DNA from: an uncultured Hyphomicrobiaceae bacterium
Lineage (GTDB): Bacteria; Pseudomonadota; Alphaproteobacteria; Rhizobiales; CAMYJA01
Assembly: GCA_947258705.1 (NCBI GenBank)
Contig: CAMYJA010000004.1
Coordinates: forward strand, 145,088 to 177,453
Reading direction: 5' to 3'
Length of the DNA: 32,366 nt
Of the stretch, positions 20,922 through 32,360 are shown piece by piece. The position numbers were made by a program, and so were the translations under genes. The notes beneath the pieces were generated by a model, which had not been told where the DNA came from, made no database searches, and worked only from the letters and a program-made list of their open reading frames with translations. Position 1 is the stretch's first letter. Each line of letters opens with the position of its first letter.

Positions 20922-21845
20922 TCACACTTCCTGACCGTCATCATGTCCGATAGGCTGCGCGTCATCGCAAACGTGCCGGGCGCATTCCAACTCGAGCGTT
21001 GTGTGGCCGATCCCAAAGTCCTCTTGCAGCACTAATTTGACCTGACTCTTAATGGCGTCTGCGTCACTCCATGCGCCCTCCGCTATGACGATATGCGCGT
21101 CAAGCGCGTTGCGATGTTCATCCATCTGCCAGAAATGCGCATGATGAATATCGGCGACCCCGTCGACCTTATTCATGCGGTCAAGGATTTTGGTGGTTTC
21201 GACTTCAGGCGGGCTTCCCAGCATCAATATGCGGATGACCGGTATGATTTCGACGAAGGATTGCCACAGGATATAACCGGCGATCATAAGCGTCACCAGG
21301 GGGTCAACGATCCGCCAATCGTAAAGAAGGATGAGAGTGCCCGCGACGATGACAGCCACCGATCCCAGTGCATCCGCCAAATTGTGAAGGAAGGCCGCCC
21401 GGATATTGACGCTGGATTTCGACAATCTGTAGGTGAGAAGTGCCGTCGCCGTGTCAATTAGAAGAGCTATGGCAGCAATGATCACAACGAGCCAACCATC
21501 AACTCCTTGGGGCTCGATCAAGCGCATCATAGCCTCGAACAACAGGTAGAGACCGATGACAATAAGGGTTGTGTAATTCACAAGCGCCGCGACCACTTCG
21601 ACACGACCATATCCGAAGGTCATGGCCTCGTTGGACGGCCTCCGTGAAATCTTGCGGGCGCCGAAAGCGATGATCAGTGAAATTGCGTCTGACAAATTGT
21701 GAATGGCATCAGCAACCAAGGCCAGGCTGCCGGCGATGACACCACCGATGGCCTGCGCGACCGTCAGGCCGAGGTTGATGACGATGGCTATAAAAACCCG
21801 TTTGTCGCCTGCATCGGGGCTGACATGATGGTGTAGATGGCCCAT
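20922..21845 (-). CDS. CzcD-like cation diffusion facilitator
   Basis: This 307-aa CDF exporter moves Zn2+/Co2+/Cd2+-type ions from cytoplasm to periplasm in exchange for protons. A short His-containing N-terminus (MGHLHHHV) leads into six predicted membrane segments. Both metal-site motifs are intact: TM2 ADAIHNLSD (Asp46, His49, Asp53) and TM5 AAFLHNLADALGS (His154, Asp158). The C-terminal cytoplasmic domain (VDGVADIHHAHFWQMDEHRN, ELECARHVC) matches the usual dimerisation domain. The 174-bp region shared with the divergent His-rich gene presumably holds both promoters; no convincing operator was identified. It is probably the cytoplasm-to-periplasm step feeding the adjacent RND pump. Confidence 0.92.
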   Translation of the reverse strand: MGHLHHHVSPDAGDKRVFIAIVINLGLTVAQAIGGVIAGSLALVADAIHNLSDAISLIIAFGARKISRRPSNEAMTFGYGRVEVVAALVNYTTLIVIGLYLLFEAMMRLIEPQGVDGWLVVIIAAIALLIDTATALLTYRLSKSSVNIRAAFLHNLADALGSVAVIVAGTLILLYDWRIVDPLVTLMIAGYILWQSFVEIIPVIRILMLGSPPEVETTKILDRMNKVDGVADIHHAHFWQMDEHRNALDAHIVIAEGAWSDADAIKSQVKLVLQEDFGIGHTTLELECARHVCDDAQPIGHDDGQEV

Positions 21846-23064: not shown

Positions 23065-23084
23065 GGTCAAACTGAGGTTTGACC
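23065..23084 (+). terminator. Stem-loop between the His-rich gene and the adaptor gene
   Basis: GGTCAAAC-TGAG-GTTTGACC is a perfect 8-bp stem with a 4-base loop, 12 bases after the His-rich gene's stop and followed by AGGTTTTC. It could be a partial terminator that lowers pump expression relative to the His-rich protein, or an mRNA-stabilising end. Confidence 0.45.
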
Positions 23085-23210
23085 AGGTTTTCAACGTGGC
23101 CGCTGGCGAACCAGACCTCCTCCTACTCCGTAGAAGGTGAAGATGTTTATCCCGGCGGCCACCGAGAATTCCTCCAATCAATTTTAGTCGATTACCGAAA
23201 GAATAGAGCC

Positions 23211-24782
23211 ATGGGCCGAAAAATTCCTCTAGCTGCATCATACACGCTTTCGCTCTACCTGATCGCAGGCGCGATTTGCTGGGGCGGTCTTACCGATAAT
23301 GCTTTGGCCGCGAAGACTGCCACCGAGACGGTGAAGTCCACCGATCATGAGCGCGATCATCGGCACAATGAAAAACCCAAGCCGCATACAGATGACGACG
23401 GACATGACCATAGCGCAGACGGAAAAAAGGCGGGGACGAAGCCGCATACAGATGACGACGGGCATGGCCATAGCGCAGATGGAAAAAAGGCGGGGACGAA
23501 GCCGCATACAGATGACGACGGGCATGGCCATAGCGCAGATGGAAAAAAGGCGGGGCCGCAGCGGCATACAGATGACGACGGGCATGGCCACAGCTCAGAC
23601 GGAAAAAAAGCGGGGTCGAAGCCGCATGCGGATCACGCCGAAGACAAGGACGACCATGGTCACGGCGCTCATGCCGAAAAGGGACACGGAGATGAGGCGG
23701 CCGGAAAGATTACTCTGACCTCAGCACAGATGAGGGAGTTCGGGATAACGACTACGAGAGCTATGGGTGGCCCCATCGACAGCCATATCGTCAGGCCCGC
23801 CGAGATAAAATTCAATGAGGACCGCATCGTTCATGTCGTCCCGAGGGTCGACGGCACCGTCAAATCGGTTTTCGGGTCCGAAGGTCAATTTATCAAGAAG
23901 GGCGCTTTGATTGCCGTGCTGGACAGCCGGGAACTGGCCGATGCCAAAGCCGAATATCTTGCCTCTCTCGCCCGCTTTCAACTTGCCAAGGAAAATCTTG
24001 ACCGCGACCAGAGCCTGTCGCGCCGGAAAATCGTGTCAGAAAAACGATTTCTGGACACGAGGACCAAACATATAGAGGCCCAGATTGCACTGCGTGTCGC
24101 CACACAGAAATTGCGTGCACTTGGCCTGTCGAGCGATGACATTCGCGGATTGCCAAAGGCAGATGATGAAACCCTCTCGCTTTTTTCAATGCGCGCACCC
24201 TTTTCGGGCATCATAACCGAACGCCATATAGTTGTCGGTGAAACGCGCTCGGTCGACAAGGAGGCACTGACGTCTCGCAACGCGGCCTTCGTGATTGCCG
24301 ATCTCAGCAAAGTCTGGGTCGACATCAGCATTTTTCCCAAAGACTTTAAGGCAGTCCGAAAGGGACAGCGGGTCAACATCCTGCTGGAGGACGGCGGACC
24401 GCCTGTTATCGGCGAAATCCTGTTCATGAGCCCTCATGTCCTGGAAGAGACCAGAACCGGTTTTGCCCGTGTCGTTCTGGATAATTCGTCGCGGCGCCTT
24501 CATCCAGGGGTCTATATCAAGGCCAAGATCGCAACGACCAGCCGCACCGTCGGAGTTCGAATACCGAAACAGGCCGTTCAAACGGGCGAGCACGGAAGGA
24601 TTGTGTTCGTGAAAGAGGGAAATGGTTTTGAGGCAAGGGAAATCCAGCTAGGCGAGGAAAACCACGGCTTCGTCGAAGTAAAATCGGGCCTTAAGCCGGG
24701 AGAAATCTATGTCAGTGCGGGAGCCTTCATTTTCAAGGCGCAGCTTGGCAAGGCGGCCTTCGGTGACGGGCACAATCACTAA
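23211..24782 (+). CDS. czcB: CzcB-like RND periplasmic adaptor with His-rich repeat domain
   Basis: This membrane-fusion protein of about 523 aa links the inner-membrane RND pump to an outer-membrane channel. A signal sequence (residues about 1-30, ending ALAA) is followed by an unusual His/Asp-rich region of roughly 130 residues. That region is built from four 20-residue repeats (KPHTDDDGHGHSADGKKAGT type) plus a GH-rich tail. The normal adaptor fold then begins near ITLTSAQMREFGITTTRAMG: barrel-sandwich halves around VPRVDGTVKSVFGSEGQFIKKG and MRAPFSGIITERHIVVGE, an alpha-hairpin between them (ELADAKAEYLASLARFQLAK) and beta-barrel/membrane-proximal parts after it. ATG 23211 was chosen because the signal peptide starts there; the upstream in-frame sequence looks non-coding. 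The pump gene follows after 23 bp. Confidence 0.9.
   Translation: MGRKIPLAASYTLSLYLIAGAICWGGLTDNALAAKTATETVKSTDHERDHRHNEKPKPHTDDDGHDHSADGKKAGTKPHTDDDGHGHSADGKKAGTKPHTDDDGHGHSADGKKAGPQRHTDDDGHGHSSDGKKAGSKPHADHAEDKDDHGHGAHAEKGHGDEAAGKITLTSAQMREFGITTTRAMGGPIDSHIVRPAEIKFNEDRIVHVVPRVDGTVKSVFGSEGQFIKKGALIAVLDSRELADAKAEYLASLARFQLAKENLDRDQSLSRRKIVSEKRFLDTRTKHIEAQIALRVATQKLRALGLSSDDIRGLPKADDETLSLFSMRAPFSGIITERHIVVGETRSVDKEALTSRNAAFVIADLSKVWVDISIFPKDFKAVRKGQRVNILLEDGGPPVIGEILFMSPHVLEETRTGFARVVLDNSSRRLHPGVYIKAKIATTSRTVGVRIPKQAVQTGEHGRIVFVKEGNGFEAREIQLGEENHGFVEVKSGLKPGEIYVSAGAFIFKAQLGKAAFGDGHNH
23379..23618 (+). repeat. Four 60-bp tandem repeats in the adaptor gene
   Basis: Four adjacent 60-bp units start at 23379, 23439, 23499 and 23559, with a partial fifth from 23619. 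Units 2 and 3 are nearly identical in DNA sequence, and units 1 and 4 differ at a few positions. The 60-bp period keeps the frame, so each unit adds a 20-residue His/Asp module. High DNA identity suggests recent duplication by slippage or unequal recombination. Confidence 0.95.
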
Positions 24783-28003: not shown

Positions 28004-28951
28004 TCAATGTTGTTTTTGAGTAGCTTCCATGAATAGGAAATCAAGATCTGCTGCATGATCCTCAGCCAATGTCTCGGTTTCAACCTGTAATGTGGAAAAC
28101 GCGAACTTGAAGTCATCGCGCAATATGTCGTGAGCGCGCGACAGGATCGATGTCGTGTCCGCATCTTTGGCTGCTCGCAGATGAGCAGAAAAGACGGTTT
28201 TGTTGGACGTTAGTGTCCAGGCATGGACGTGGTGGACGTCAGTGATCTCTGGCAAGGACTCCAACTTCCTTATCACCGCCTTCAGGTCCATGTCCGCAGG
28301 TGCGGCTTCCATAAGGACGTCAAGCGCGTCGCGCATAATACCCCATGACGCATATAATAGGACCACGCCGAAAGCCATGCCAAGCAGCGGATCGATGGCC
28401 AGGAATCCCGTGAATTTTATGACGAGTGCGGTGACGATAATAAGAAAGCTTCCCACAAATGTCTGCATAACATGCCAGAAGGCTCCGCGCATGTTGAGGT
28501 CGTCTTTCTGAGATCCGTACAGGAGTTTAAGGGAGATTAATTCGGTTACCAGGCCCCCGGCAGCGGCAATCAGCATGGGTGTGGTTGGCAGGTCAATCGG
28601 GTTTCGCAGGCGCATATATCCCATAATCAGAACAATGACCGCCATGACAGCAAGAAACACACCGTTCAAAAGCGCGCCAATCATTTCAGCCCGATGCCAT
28701 CCGAATGTGTGGCGTGCACTGGACGGCCGGAGCGCGATGCGTGCCGCGATATATGCGAGAACAACTCCGCCGACGGCTGAAAAAGTGTGAAAGGCATCTG
28801 AGATAACGGCAACGGATCCGGTATAAATTCCGATACCCAACTCGATTAAAAAATAGATACCGGTCAGCCAGCCGGAAATCTTCAACGCCCTTTCTTTTTC
28901 CGGCGACACCATATTGAAACTCGGCATCGAGTGCCCAGAATGATCCGCCAT
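28004..28951 (-). CDS. Atypical cation diffusion facilitator-family protein
   Basis: This 315-aa six-TM protein has overall CDF architecture: a His-containing N-terminus (MADHSGHSMP), TM1-TM6, and a C-terminal cytoplasmic domain (LPEITDVHHVHAWTLTSNKT). The metal-binding Asp of both HxxxD motifs is missing: TM2 reads SDAFHTFSAVGG (His55 kept, Ala59 where Asp is expected) and TM5 reads AFWHVMQTFVGS (His160 kept, Thr164 where Asp is expected). It may transport a different ion or have a modified mechanism. The ATG at 28951 has a strong GGGAGAG ribosome-binding site 5 bases upstream; longer in-frame starts lack one. It lies 81 bp downstream of the SHOCT gene and probably shares its CueR-type promoter. 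Confidence 0.88.
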   Translation of the reverse strand: MADHSGHSMPSFNMVSPEKERALKISGWLTGIYFLIELGIGIYTGSVAVISDAFHTFSAVGGVVLAYIAARIALRPSSARHTFGWHRAEMIGALLNGVFLAVMAVIVLIMGYMRLRNPIDLPTTPMLIAAAGGLVTELISLKLLYGSQKDDLNMRGAFWHVMQTFVGSFLIIVTALVIKFTGFLAIDPLLGMAFGVVLLYASWGIMRDALDVLMEAAPADMDLKAVIRKLESLPEITDVHHVHAWTLTSNKTVFSAHLRAAKDADTTSILSRAHDILRDDFKFAFSTLQVETETLAEDHAADLDFLFMEATQKQH

Positions 28952-29032: not shown

Positions 29033-29260
29033 TTACCCGTGTTCCAGAACGCGTCGTTTTTCTTCATATTCTCGTTGGTCGATATCGCCACGTGCCAAAC
29101 GTTCATCAAGTATCTGCAGGGGCGCCTTTTCAATTGTCCGTGGCTCTAATTCGGTCTTTCTTTCGTTTGGTCCGTAAAGAATATAGACAAGAAACACGGC
29201 AATACCGATAAGTATCAAGGGGCCAAAAAACATTCCAAATCCTCCTCCAAATCCCATCAT
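29033..29260 (-). CDS. Small SHOCT-domain membrane protein
   Basis: This protein of about 75 aa has one N-terminal membrane segment (GMFFGPLILIGIAVFLVYIL). The C-terminal SHOCT motif is LDERLARGDIDQREYEEKRRVL, a short helical module common in small membrane proteins and often found next to metal-resistance genes. GGAGG lies 8 bases upstream of the ATG at 29260, so this start is preferred over the in-frame ATG at 29275, which contains that ribosome-binding site. It is the first gene after the CueR-type promoter at 29344-29375. A 5' leader of about 77 nt contains a GTCACCT/AGGTGAC hairpin (29305-29331). The molecular role is unknown. Confidence 0.78.
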   Translation of the reverse strand: MMGFGGGFGMFFGPLILIGIAVFLVYILYGPNERKTELEPRTIEKAPLQILDERLARGDIDQREYEEKRRVLEHG

Positions 29261-29343
29261 GACATTCGCCTCCATTGTTCTGTTCGATTCAGCAGAGAAG
29301 TCACGTCACCTTCCTGTATTGGTGAGGTGACCTCCTTCAGATC

Positions 29344-29375
29344 GATATGGTGGTTCCAGTAGATGGAAGGTCAAG
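29344..29375 (-). promoter_or_regulatory. CueR/HmrR-type promoter-operator 1
   Basis: On the minus strand a -35 TTGACC (29369-29374) and a -10 CATATC (29344-29349) are separated by 19 bp, the long spacing that MerR-family activators correct. The spacer carries the dyad TTCCA-N5-TGGAA, and the CTTGACCTTCC start matches known CueR/HmrR operators of copper exporter genes. It faces the SHOCT and CDF genes. The 22-bp core is identical to the site at 31588-31609. The regulator gene is not in this window. Confidence 0.72.
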
Positions 29376-29504
29376 ATCTTTCCGTTAGTAAAACTTCTTC
29401 TAATTTCAATTTGCACCCAGGTTCATTTTTTGGAGTATCGAAACGCCTACTCCGAGGTTGCCGCCCGCAATCGAACATTAGCCGTATCACCTGGTCGGCA
29501 CGCC

Positions 29505-30854
29505 TCACGGCGATATGGCCGATATGTCAGGATCGGTCTCGTCTCTCACCTCAGTGACCCTCGCGGTTATCTGGTCGCGACCATAGATGTCTTCGCGAAA
29601 AAACGCTGTACCGTCGTCCCTCGCCCAAGCCGTGACGTAGACGAAATGAACGGGAACCGGGGTCTCCAGCTTGATGTCTTTGCGCTGCCCGAGAGCGACC
29701 GTCGTCTTTACGATCTCCCCCGGCCATTCGCTTTGTTCCTTGAGGAGCCAGGTCGCAAGCTCCGTTATTTTTCGTACGCGGACACATCCCGAGCTAAAGG
29801 CTCTGCGGCTTCTATTGAAGAGTTTTTTCATAGGCGTGTCGTGCAGATACACTATGTCCTTGTTCGGCATATTTAGCCGCAAAACACCGAGGGCATTGAG
29901 CGGGCCCGGATCCTGGCGGAATTTGAGATTGAAGATATCGGGTGACGACCAGTCGAGCTGACGCGGATCAAGCGGCTTGGCTCCCCACGCCGGCAAGGCT
30001 TTATAATGCTGCTCATAGAAATAGGATGGCTTCTTTCGGATCTGCGGGATCAGATCACGAGCCAAAATCGATTTTGGAACGCGCCAATAGGGATGAAAAT
30101 TCAATTCCCTGATGCTGGTGCTAAGGGAAGGAGTCGCGCGGCTGGATTGCCCAACCACAACCTTGCTCTGGAGCGCGACTGAATTTTCCTGAACTGCCTG
30201 CAAGCTGTAGGCGGGGATGTTCACCAACACATATCGTTGCGCTGTCGAAATTTTGCTCAGCTCACGGAGACGAGCGAGGTTGAGCTCAAGCTGCCGTAAA
30301 CGCTGGATCGCCGGAACATTGAGAGCATATCGGGTCTGCTTGTCCAAAAAACCGGTAACATTGAGTCCATGACGAAGCTGGAACCTTGCGACCGCATCCC
30401 TGAGACTCGAATCAAACTCCCATTTTGGCCATGAGCGGGACGTCTCGCGCAAATCACCGGTTTTGTGGAGTTGCTGCCGCAAAGCCCAAATTTGAGTGCC
30501 TGTGTCATTGATGCGAAGCGTCTTGTCGTAATTGGTTTTTGACCAACCACCTTCGGCAACGATCGAACGATATCGCTTTATGGCAATCGACAAGCCTGTA
30601 TTCGTCTTTGGGCTAACATAGGGCTCATTGGTATGATATTTCGAATTCAGCCTCGATTGCAAAGCAGCACGTTCGCGTTCGCGTTTTTCGCGTAACTCCG
30701 CAGGTGTCTGCTCTTCATCCGTTTCCCACCAGTCTTCGTCGGTGCTGGCCTGGCTGTAATGAGGGGCCGCTACGGTTGTGAGGCCCAGGAACAGGGCAGC
30801 TATCAGAATGTGCTGTGGCGCGGATCTTTTTAGTCGTTCAGAAGTCATGCGCAT
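29505..30854 (-). CDS. YcbB-type L,D-transpeptidase
   Basis: This periplasmic enzyme of about 449 aa makes 3-3 cross-links in peptidoglycan or attaches proteins to it. A signal sequence (HILIAALFLGLTTVAAPHYSQA) is followed by a charged linker. A peptidoglycan-binding domain comes next (LRDAVARFQLRHGLNVTGFL), then the YkuD catalytic domain, with VPKSILARDLIPQI, IVYLHDTPMKKLFNRSRRAF and the catalytic SSGCVRV (Cys357). ATG 30854 (or 30848) fits the signal peptide; the ORF extends in frame to 30923, but that part looks non-coding. It lies 118 bp after the cytochrome gene and probably belongs to its copper-type transcript. L,D-transpeptidases use a cysteine that copper can poison, which makes this placement notable. 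Confidence 0.9.
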   Translation of the reverse strand: MRMTSERLKRSAPQHILIAALFLGLTTVAAPHYSQASTDEDWWETDEEQTPAELREKRERERAALQSRLNSKYHTNEPYVSPKTNTGLSIAIKRYRSIVAEGGWSKTNYDKTLRINDTGTQIWALRQQLHKTGDLRETSRSWPKWEFDSSLRDAVARFQLRHGLNVTGFLDKQTRYALNVPAIQRLRQLELNLARLRELSKISTAQRYVLVNIPAYSLQAVQENSVALQSKVVVGQSSRATPSLSTSIRELNFHPYWRVPKSILARDLIPQIRKKPSYFYEQHYKALPAWGAKPLDPRQLDWSSPDIFNLKFRQDPGPLNALGVLRLNMPNKDIVYLHDTPMKKLFNRSRRAFSSGCVRVRKITELATWLLKEQSEWPGEIVKTTVALGQRKDIKLETPVPVHFVYVTAWARDDGTAFFREDIYGRDQITARVTEVRDETDPDISAISP

Positions 30855-30972
30855 GTGAAGTCTGGAGCACGGTTTAGATGACCAAGGCAGACGGCCGTCA
30901 ATTATCGTTCGGTAGAAATTCATTTAATAGTTATTTGATCGAAGATGTGAGTTCACACTTCAGCTCGCCTAA

Positions 30973-31413
30973 TCACATTCTGTGTGGCCGATAAGTGATG
31001 CCGTTGGCTAGCTGAAGTTCCCGTACATATTTCACGATTGCGTCGACCTGCTCCCTGGTTACCTGCGGTTGCTTCGGCATGTTACCGTATGGCCAATGGT
31101 GCTGCGGTACGCCTCTTCTCGCGGCCTGGTGAAATGACCTGTCGTCGTGATGTCCCGGATTGTAAATGTCGTGCACGAGCGGTGGCCCCTTATCAGTACC
31201 AGAGGCATTTTGGCCATGGCATTCAGCGCAGTTTTTTTCAAATGCCAGCTGGCCATTTAAGGCCATCGCTGAAAGCTTGGGGACACGTACATCGACTCTC
31301 ACAATTTTGCCGGCTCGTTGCGATGGCGCGAAATTCTGGTACGCAAACACGCCCACACCGCCAGCGAAAAAGGCCAAAACAAAATATTTGGGAAGTTTCT
31401 CAGAAAAGCTCAT
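30973..31413 (-). CDS. Membrane-anchored mono-haem cytochrome c
   Basis: This 146-aa c-type cytochrome has an N-terminal anchor or signal (YFVLAFFAGGVGVFAYQNFA). It has a single haem-binding motif CAECH (Cys62, Cys65, His66) and a likely axial Met112 in YGNMPKQP, giving a class I fold in the periplasm. The mature part contains several extra His residues (NPGHHDDRSFHQ, GVPQHHWPYG). Small cytochromes of this form often sit in copper-resistance clusters, though their electron partners are usually unknown. The ATG at 31413 has GGAGAATG-type sequence upstream and overlaps the stop of a candidate small ORF. The upstream promoter carries a CueR-type operator. Confidence 0.88.
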   Translation of the reverse strand: MSFSEKLPKYFVLAFFAGGVGVFAYQNFAPSQRAGKIVRVDVRVPKLSAMALNGQLAFEKNCAECHGQNASGTDKGPPLVHDIYNPGHHDDRSFHQAARRGVPQHHWPYGNMPKQPQVTREQVDAIVKYVRELQLANGITYRPHRM

Positions 31414-31529
31414 GACATTCTCCAGGACACCTCACCGATAAACCTTCGGCTAAGGAAATTGTAAAATAGGCCGAGAGCAAATACCCCATACCAGGCATCG
31501 GCCAGTTGCTTGACCAGTAACTCCGCCAA
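31410..31529 (-). CDS. Candidate 39-aa small membrane protein
   Basis: A short minus-strand ORF lies in the leader between the CueR-type promoter and the cytochrome gene. It starts at TTG 31529 with AAGGCG about 10 bases upstream, and its TGA overlaps the cytochrome ATG (ATGA). The predicted product has one hydrophobic stretch (ADAWYGVFALGLFYNFLSRR) and a basic end. The 4-base overlap with the cytochrome suggests translational coupling. No homologue is recognised, and an accidental ORF cannot be excluded: a second frame is also open here from a GTG. Confidence 0.35.
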   Translation of the reverse strand: MAELLVKQLADAWYGVFALGLFYNFLSRRFIGEVSWRMS

Positions 31530-31577
31530 TCGGTCACATCGCCTTATGCAATTAGCTTTGTAACATCAGGCATAAAG

Positions 31578-31609
31578 AATATCGCCATTCCAGTAGATGG
31601 AAGGTCAAG
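31578..31609 (-). promoter_or_regulatory. CueR/HmrR-type promoter-operator 2
   Basis: On the minus strand TTGACC (31603-31608) and GATATT (31578-31583) are separated by 19 bp with the same TTCCA-N5-TGGAA dyad. The 22-bp core at 31588-31609 is identical to that at 29354-29375. The predicted transcript starts near 31571 and has a leader of about 155 nt before the cytochrome gene. The adjoining 31610-31745 stretch holds no gene or clear element. Confidence 0.72.
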
Positions 31610-31745: not shown

Positions 31746-32360
31746 TCAGTCGGGAAGATCCGTGCGTGGTTCATCGACGAACAACGGGCAGAACCCTTGA
31801 GGTGGCACTGCCAACGCACTGTTGAATTTGCTGGACATATTCTGGAAGGCGATCAGACCTGTCAGCTCAACGATGCCATCATCGTCAAAATAGGATCTTA
31901 AGCGATCCACCAGCCCGTCCTCGACCTGCCTATCTGATAGCGTCATGGCCTCCGCGTATTCGAGTACTGCTTTCTCCTTTTCATCAAAAAGGTCACTGTC
32001 CTTCCAGACCGACAACGCAGTAACTTTTTCACTTCCTACCCCGCGCTTGATCAATGTGGCGGAGTTTAAATCGACACAGAAAGAGCACGAATTAATCTGA
32101 GAAACGCGCACAGTAACGAGCGAGCGCAGAGCCGGGTCGACAGGCGAGGATCGGCGGTCGAACATGCCATAAAGTACTGCCACACCAAGGAAGAGTCTTG
32201 GCGACCTTGCCCAAAGGAGCGCCGCATCCAACACTTTTCCATATTTACGGCGCTGGTTCCAAAAGAACGGCCGCAGGTAAAACGGATAAGATTTCGAAGT
32301 TTTCACGGGAACTCTCATCTTGATACTTTCCGCGCCCGGCATTTGAAGTTTCTGATCCAT
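31746..32360 (-). CDS. Carboxymuconolactone decarboxylase-family (AhpD-like) protein
   Basis: This protein of up to 204 aa carries a CMD/AhpD fold: an alpha-helical core with LVTVRVSQINSCSFCVDLNSATLIKRG. The CxxC pair is present, but the His that often follows it (CxxCxxxH) is replaced by Asn. The later segment FDEKEKAVLEYAEAMTLSD and the terminal GIVELTGLIAFQNMSSKFN are typical of the family. Members act as peroxide-linked disulfide reductases or in unrelated decarboxylations, so no specific reaction is claimed. The start is uncertain: ATG 32360 lies at the window edge with AGGGAG directly adjacent, the frame stays open beyond it, and an internal ATG before RVPVKTSK is possible. Confidence 0.8.
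   Translation of the reverse strand: MDQKLQMPGAESIKMRVPVKTSKSYPFYLRPFFWNQRRKYGKVLDAALLWARSPRLFLGVAVLYGMFDRRSSPVDPALRSLVTVRVSQINSCSFCVDLNSATLIKRGVGSEKVTALSVWKDSDLFDEKEKAVLEYAEAMTLSDRQVEDGLVDRLRSYFDDDGIVELTGLIAFQNMSSKFNSALAVPPQGFCPLFVDEPRTDLPD

What the first reader, a model, noticed from the sequence alone, without database searches (positions are those of the whole stretch)
29344..31609. Two identical CueR/HmrR-type operators define a small copper regulon
A 22-bp core is exactly repeated at 29354-29375 and 31588-31609, both with TTGACC, 19-bp spacing and the TTCCA-N5-TGGAA dyad. They precede SHOCT-CDF and cytochrome c-L,D-transpeptidase. No copper ATPase or multicopper oxidase is in the set, so this is an unusual group of predicted copper-induced genes.
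Basis: partly seen in the sequence, partly recalled or inferred. Interest (0 to 1): 0.72.

Follow-up and report, generated by a model that had tools for sequence, protein, structure and literature searches.

The report
Copper-switch sites and odd metal exporter
Two identical DNA switches in this bacterium belong to a larger set that also drives its copper pump and copper oxidases, and one of them controls a metal exporter of a little-described kind that lacks the usual zinc-binding residues and tends to sit beside copper genes.

Summary
Confirmed: the 22-bp repeat (29354-29375, 31588-31609) is real, and both copies sit in minus-strand promoters TTGACC-N19-CATATC/GATATT, the published CueR/HmrR design. 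Genome-wide the 22-mer pattern gives 13 matches (reversed control 0) at 9 distinct places. They also precede a Cu-ATPase operon carrying cueR (TIGR02044, above cut-off) and two multicopper-oxidase genes.

The surprise is the CDF. It belongs to a separate clade whose transport quartet is HA-HT instead of HD-HD, with two clade-specific methionines (16 of 16 order-level relatives). CopA or MCO genes lie nearby in 53 of 80 scan loci and 6 of 16 order-level loci, against 0 of 31 other CDFs; CueR-type sites (up to 1 mismatch) in 23 of 80, 3 of 16 and 0 of 31. I propose a copper(I)-handling CDF; this is inference, no metal was measured. The cytochrome c is a recurrent copper-cluster gene; CueR-regulated cytochromes were predicted in 2006. 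The LdtD-type L,D-transpeptidase's copper link is seen only in this genome as far as tested, and LDT counts near copper genes do not clearly exceed the control.

The parts
29353..29374 (-). CueR/HmrR-type operator 1, TTGACCTTCCATCTACTGGAAC
29344..29349 (-). -10 hexamer CATATC, 19 bp from TTGACC
29033..29275 (-). SHOCT-domain protein, 80 aa, with a hydrophobic stretch
   Evidence: PF09851 3.2e-08
28004..28951 (-). CDF transporter with HA-HT quartet (H74, A78, H179, T183 when the 334-aa ORF from 29008 is numbered); likely start ATG at 28951
   Evidence: PF01545 and PF16916, TIGR01297 above cut-off, quartet and tree, fold
31587..31608 (-). CueR/HmrR-type operator 2, TTGACCTTCCATCTACTGGAAT
31578..31583 (-). 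-10 hexamer GATATT, 19 bp from TTGACC
30973..31413 (-). cytochrome c, 146 aa, heme motif CAECH; membrane-anchored or periplasmic by its N-terminus (inference)
   Evidence: PF00034 2.3e-13; copper-cluster relatives
29505..30923 (-). L,D-transpeptidase of YcbB/LdtD type, motif SSGCVR; the true start may be an internal ATG at 30854 or 30848
   Evidence: PF03734 and PF01471, PDB 6ntw 1.5e-61, motif

Best explanation
The two sites are CueR/HmrR operators inside sigma-70-type promoters whose hexamers are held 19 bp apart. By the established MerR-family mechanism (known from the family, not shown here) CueR with bound Cu(I) distorts the DNA and turns the promoters on. They belong to one genome-wide copper regulon that also covers a Rieske-Cu-ATPase-cueR operon, two multicopper-oxidase genes, a Met-rich/beta-propeller/cytochrome c group, DUF5676, an ArsP-like permease, DUF411 and VTT genes. 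Promoter 1 would make SHOCT-CDF. The CDF belongs to a separate clade that has lost both Asp of the zinc site and gained two methionines in TM3, and I propose that it handles Cu(I) beside CopA. Promoter 2 would make a cytochrome c, possibly an electron acceptor beside the multicopper oxidases or a replacement for copper-damaged cytochrome, plus a YcbB-type L,D-transpeptidase that could offset copper inhibition of such enzymes. Shown: sites, regulator gene, shared sites at copper genes, clade, residues, neighbourhoods. Inferred: induction, the metal carried, the roles of cytochrome and transpeptidase. Regulon membership about 0.9, copper-linked CDF clade about 0.85, Cu(I) as its substrate about 0.4.
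For: Same operator at copA-cueR and at MCO genes: 13 matches, reversed control 0 (genes). CopA is above the TIGR01511 copper-ATPase cut-off (585 of 397 bits) and CueR above TIGR02044 (155.8 of 147.4 bits). CDF clade: HA-HT and M122/M129 in 16 of 16 order-level loci and 80 of 80 scan loci; of 31 controls 27 were readable: 22 HD-HD, 2 EN-HD, 2 HD-ED, 1 HD-ND, all with Glu at 129. The clade is one side of a branch with 100/100 support. CopA or MCO nearby in 53 of 80 and 6 of 16 against 0 of 31; operators of up to 1 mismatch in 23 of 80, 3 of 16 and 0 of 31; reversed operator 0 in all three sets. Next gene upstream on the same strand is CopA in 17 and MCO in 18 of 80; next downstream is CopA in 16. 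Among six plasmid loci opened, five have an operator (0-1 mismatch) upstream of the CDF on its strand. One relative reads operator-CDF-cytochrome-MCO (L136, same contig as L225).
Against: No expression or metal data. The scan patterns contained the quartet peptides, so HA-HT in 80 of 80 is partly circular (the methionines were not in the patterns). Six order-level loci are the same contigs as six scan loci by length, so the two sets overlap, and the p-values ignore kinship. 27 of 80 and 10 of 16 loci showed no CopA or MCO, some on short contigs. Of the 23 scan loci with an operator only 10 have it within 4 kb upstream on the CDF strand and 2 within 400 bp. The window CDF itself lies next to a CzcA-like RND pump, and RND hits occur in 6 of 80 scan loci and in L132 and L143, so other metals are not excluded. 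Loss of both Asp could mean a non-transporting subunit. No operator of up to 2 mismatches points at the L,D-transpeptidase in 14 relatives. A second CueR-like gene (C9, 145 bits) leaves open which protein serves each site.
Confidence: 0.8

Rival explanations
1. The CDF is a non-transporting or regulatory CDF subunit, its site dead, that pairs with another CDF such as the canonical one at 20922-21845.
For: Both Asp of the quartet are lost. In the alignment to the ZnT1 D47N/D255N mutant structure (8j2g) the two changed positions fall on Ala78 and Thr183. The genome has three CDF genes. Altered TM5 motifs are known in the Zrg17-like and ZnT9-like CDF clusters (PMC1868760, passages).
Against: Both His and two new Met are conserved in all rows, the N-terminal His pair in 22 of 23 rows, and copper pumps or oxidases lie nearby in 53 of 80 and 6 of 16 loci.
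Confidence: 0.25
2. The CDF still exports zinc, cobalt or another divalent ion and is merely co-induced by copper to correct mis-metallation.
For: Divalent ions are the rule in the CDF family; the best NCBIfam equivalog is ZitB, below its cut-off (181.9 of 408 bits); CzcA-like RND genes lie next to it in the window and in some relatives. A different CDF gene, dmeF of Sinorhizobium meliloti, is reported as copper-induced (PMC6044271, abstract start in a search listing).
Against: The HD-HD zinc quartet is absent in all 80 scan and 16 order-level rows (90 distinct loci).
Confidence: 0.25
3. The two window sites are recognised by another MerR-family protein, such as the MerR-like one (C13:15942) or the second CueR-like one (C9:62576), and respond to another metal.
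For: Four MerR_1 genes in the genome; the C9 protein scores 145 bits for the CueR model.
Against: The window sites match the sites at copA-cueR and the MCO genes and the published HmrR/CueR signals.
Confidence: 0.1
4. The cytochrome c and L,D-transpeptidase are not one transcript, and only the cytochrome is copper-regulated.
For: The gap is 49 bp by the longest ORF or about 120 bp from a likely internal start. No relative of the cytochrome was found beside the transpeptidase in the seven wider neighbourhoods of its relatives, L074-L080.
Against: A simple scan shows no minus-strand terminator-like or promoter-like site in the gap; that scan found no more sites overall than shuffles do, so it is weak evidence.
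Confidence: 0.35

Closest known systems
CueR/HmrR copper regulon (E. coli cueR-copA-cueO; actP-hmrR)
   Same: 19-bp promoter spacer, ACCTTCC/GGAA dyad, regulator gene following a Cu-ATPase gene as in actP-hmrR, multicopper oxidase in the regulon (PMC1526738, passages and section 10 read)
   Different: Adds SHOCT-CDF, cytochrome c-L,D-transpeptidase, ArsP-like permease, DUF5676, DUF411, VTT and Met-rich genes
CueR sites before cytochrome c553/c554 genes in Vibrio (predicted, PMC1526738)
   Same: Cytochrome c under a CueR-type promoter
   Different: Here followed by an L,D-transpeptidase; relatives of this cytochrome recur in alphaproteobacterial copper clusters. The two cytochromes were not compared directly
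CDF transporters (ZitB, YiiP/FieF, ZnT1, ZnT3, ZnT8)
   Same: Domains and fold
   Different: HA-HT quartet in place of HD-HD or DD-HD; Met where the 27 readable controls have Glu (position 129)
LdtD/YcbB L,D-transpeptidase
   Same: YkuD domain with SSGCVR and a PG-binding domain; PDB 6ntw
   Different: Below the NCBIfam equivalog cut-off (262.5 of 425 bits); predicted CueR control. Control of E. coli LDTs through Cpx is recalled, not taken from a call

Membership tests
CueR/HmrR regulon | TTGACC and -10 separated by 19 bp around a TTCC-GGAA dyad | tested here: met
   ten promoters at nine places; the -10 of C13:2603 (CACCTT) and of the C7 pair (AATACT) is weak, and C13:13620 has TTGAGC
CueR/HmrR regulon | A CueR-family regulator in the genome | tested here: met
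   TIGR02044 155.8 bits, cut-off 147.4; 155.3
CueR/HmrR regulon | Same operator at Cu-ATPase or multicopper oxidase genes | tested here: met
   the two MCOs match CueO/CopA-type models but below their equivalog or subfamily cut-offs
CueR/HmrR regulon | Induction by Cu(I), Ag or Au | not testable with these tools
   no expression data
CDF (Cation_efflux) | Pfam, NCBIfam superfamily and fold | tested here: met
   PF01545 5.4e-35; TIGR01297 223.9 of 82.35 bits; ZnT3 9jj1 TM-score 0.74, rmsd 6.2
Zinc-type CDF (HD-HD) | Asp at the last place of the TM2 and TM5 HxxxD motifs | tested here: not met
   Ala78 and Thr183
ZitB equivalog | NF002923 cut-off of 408 bits | tested here: not met
   181.9 bits
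Cu(I)-transporting CDF (proposed) | Cu(I) binding and transport | not testable with these tools
   needs experiment
YcbB/LdtD-type L,D-transpeptidase | YkuD domain with catalytic SxGCxR | tested here: met
LdtD equivalog PRK10594 | cut-off of 425 bits | tested here: not met
   262.5 bits

The most novel reading that the evidence does not exclude
The HA-HT CDF clade is a secondary Cu(I) exporter family: the CDF zinc site has been rebuilt with His and Met for copper, it is switched on by CueR in part of its members, and it has spread, also on plasmids, through copper clusters of Alphaproteobacteria alongside CopA and multicopper oxidases.
Probability: 0.4. Interest if true: 0.8.

Novelty: new variant of a known kind. 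Interest (0 to 1): 0.55.

Why it matters
CDF proteins are treated as exporters of divalent ions. A clade with the zinc ligands replaced, linked by genome context and operator to copper, would be a natural test of how CDF metal choice is set, and possibly a further copper-exit route beside P-type ATPases. It would also place a cytochrome and a cell-wall crosslinking enzyme under direct copper control in this genome, which bears on reports that copper inhibits L,D-transpeptidases.

Tried and rejected
Rejected: 'copper regulon lacking a pump or oxidase' (one search shows both). Rejected: a conserved cytochrome-L,D-transpeptidase operon for the window-type enzyme. Of the 14 relatives (15 of 297 genomes at E up to 1e-100, own included), none has an operator of up to 2 mismatches pointing at it within the stretches scanned (L022-L035, about 1.5 kb flanks; seven of them wider, L074-L080).

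Not supported: enrichment of L,D-transpeptidases beside copper genes. Counts with any L,D-transpeptidase hit were 4 of 8 cytochrome plasmid loci, 5 of 18 cytochrome genome loci (4 at 200 bits or more), 14 of 80 CDF loci and 4 of 31 controls. Fisher p is 0.78 for CDF loci against controls; the cytochrome loci were not tested.

Limits: only 8 of 162 plasmid records with a cytochrome match were opened, and 6 of 1255 for the CDF. The cytochrome neighbourhoods had no control set. A looser operator pattern was not specific: 24 matches against 13 control matches. Structure prediction gave no coordinates to measure ligand distances, and the model is least sure around TM2 (pLDDT 53-67). Four of 31 control CDF loci gave no readable quartet. 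The control loci were the best Pfam or similarity matches, not a random draw. The tree used 78 rows of 125 after an 85% identity filter, and some control rows have long branches.

Searches for print. In these I saw no report of a copper-transporting bacterial CDF, of an HA-HT clade, or of an L,D-transpeptidase under CueR; a copper-induced CDF gene (dmeF, PMC6044271) appeared in the listing. Only titles and abstract starts were seen, except passages of PMC9302775, PMC12729407, PMC5703985, PMC1526738 (59, and section 10 in 102), PMC1868760, PMC10304878, PMC8224329 and PMC12542790. Peters 2018 (PMC6196517) is not held; its claim was seen only as cited in other papers.

Full report
Observation. 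The 22-bp repeat is exact at 29354-29375 and 31588-31609. On the minus strand both are TTGACC-N19--10 promoters around TTCCA-TCTAC-TGGAA. Outside the 60-bp coding repeats near 23379-23590 it is the only direct exact repeat of 18 bp or more in the window. A related pattern had 3 matches at two places against a mean of 0.03 in shuffles.

Genome. The window is the end of contig C4 of a 2.77-Mb, 66-contig genome that is the only one of its family in the held set. The 22-mer pattern with up to 2 mismatches has 13 matches, and its reversed control has none. Overlapping matches collapse to nine places. Seven lie outside the window: C13:2582 before DUF5676; C13:6028 before a Met-rich, beta-propeller and cytochrome c group; C13:9823 and C13:9870 between a VTT gene and Rieske-copA-cueR; C13:13620 before SHOCT-multicopper oxidase; C6:82018 before an ArsP-like permease; and C7:68692 between a multicopper oxidase and a DUF411 gene. 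CopA is above the TIGR01511 cut-off; the two oxidases match CueO- and CopA-type oxidase models below their cut-offs. cueR (C13:13150-13560) scores 155.8 bits against a cut-off of 147.4. A second CueR-like gene on C9 scores 145. The published signals and the 19-bp rule for CueR and HmrR agree (PMC1526738, passages and section 10).

Cytochrome c. Relatives occur in 93 of 397 order-level genomes at E up to 1e-20, own included, and in 162 plasmid records. I opened 8 plasmid and 18 genome neighbourhoods of mostly the best matches, plus one more in Bacterium MnTg02 (L145). Of these 27, 23 hold a hit to CopA or a multicopper oxidase. The four without are L081, L085, L088 and L145, and the L087 hit is weak. 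Of the two paralogues in the own genome one lies beside an oxidase-like frame (L099) and one (L100, 3.7 kb) shows none. CueR-type sites with up to 2 mismatches stand upstream of the cytochrome or of the genes before it in L091, L095, L097 and L098, with L097 directly comparable to the window; in the 8 plasmid loci none stands directly before the cytochrome. There was no control set for this gene. CueR-controlled cytochromes were predicted before in Vibrio (PMC1526738).

CDF. The protein has the CDF domains and fold (AlphaFold mean pLDDT 77.4, least sure around TM2; best PDB match ZnT3). Its transport quartet reads His74-Ala78 and His179-Thr183. The other CDF of the window (20922-21845) is canonical HD-HD. 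At E up to 1e-60, 17 of 397 order-level genomes have a relative, own included. All 16 fetched loci of other genomes have HA-HT plus Met122 and Met129. The genome scan found 367 relatives and kept 80; its patterns contained the quartet peptides, so HA-HT in 80 of 80 is partly built in, but the two methionines (80 of 80) are not. Among 31 control CDF loci of the order, 27 gave a quartet: 22 HD-HD, 2 EN-HD, 2 HD-ED, 1 HD-ND, with Glu at the place of Met129 in all 27. The clade is one side of a branch with support 100/100. The quartets named in the passages I read of a 2017 survey of CDF clades do not include HA-HT (PMC5703985, passages; its figure and supplement were not seen).

Copper context of the clade. 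CopA hits (450 bits or more) or multicopper oxidase hits (80 bits or more) within the held flank (up to 8 kb): 53 of 80, 6 of 16, and 0 of 31 controls (Fisher 9e-12 and 7e-4). CueR-type operators with up to 1 mismatch anywhere in the locus: 23 of 80, 3 of 16, 0 of 31 (Fisher 4e-4 and 0.03); reversed pattern 0 in all. Upstream of the CDF on its own strand the operator lies within 4 kb in 10 of 80 and within 400 bp in 2 of 80, in all three of the order-level cases (L129, L135, L136), and in five of six plasmid loci opened. CopA is the next gene upstream in 17 of 80, MCO in 18, CopA downstream in 16. The 80 loci span Hyphomicrobiales, Rhodobacterales, Maricaulales, Sphingomonadales, Rhodospirillales, other Alphaproteobacteria and Gammaproteobacteria, with single metagenome records under other phyla. 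Many are near relatives and the p-values ignore that. Against a copper-only reading, CzcA-like RND hits lie in 6 of 80 loci, in L132 and L143, and next to the CDF in the window. L136 (same contig as L225) reads operator-CDF-cytochrome-MCO. On plasmids of Tritonibacter, Aliiroseovarius and Roseivivax the CDF directly follows a heavy-metal ATPase. SHOCT lies directly before the CDF in 1 of 80 loci (L157).

L,D-transpeptidase. It is of YcbB/LdtD type (6ntw, 1.5e-61) with the catalytic motif intact. Its place in a copper operon was not found in the 14 relatives examined. L,D-transpeptidases of other types occur in several copper clusters, but counts against controls do not show enrichment. A compensating role under copper is a hypothesis based on reports that copper inhibits these enzymes, seen as cited in PMC9302775.

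Verdict. The finding is right about the sites and, most likely, the regulator, and too narrow about the regulon. Most of it is an ordinary CueR regulon. What is not ordinary is the CDF clade with an altered metal site and copper context; its substrate is open.

Noticed in passing
window 23379-23590: Tandem 60-bp repeats in the adaptor-like gene (23079-24782) before the RND pump encode a His/Asp-rich stretch.
   Followed up: no
window 29305-29331: Inverted repeat GTCACCT/AGGTGAC (13-bp loop) in the presumed leader of SHOCT-CDF, between the -10 and the start codon; seen by eye.
   Followed up: no
L017 (G000:C9) 2056-2463: A second CueR-like gene (145 bits) between a sulfurtransferase-like and a cystathionine-lyase-like frame (named by reading the frames, not searched), with no CueR-type site of up to 3 mismatches in the 5 kb fetched.
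   Followed up: partly
L076 6502-6523 and L015 4019-4040: CueR-type sites before ArsP-like permease genes in two genomes, which suggests that this permease may be a recurrent copper-regulon gene.
   Followed up: partly
L085 1-654 and window 31746-32360: A carboxymuconolactone-decarboxylase-family gene lies next to the cytochrome c relative in another genome too (74% identity over the piece held), though in the other order.
   Followed up: no
L099 6786-8245: In the own genome another multicopper-oxidase-like frame on C7 is followed directly by a paralogue of the window cytochrome c.
   Followed up: no
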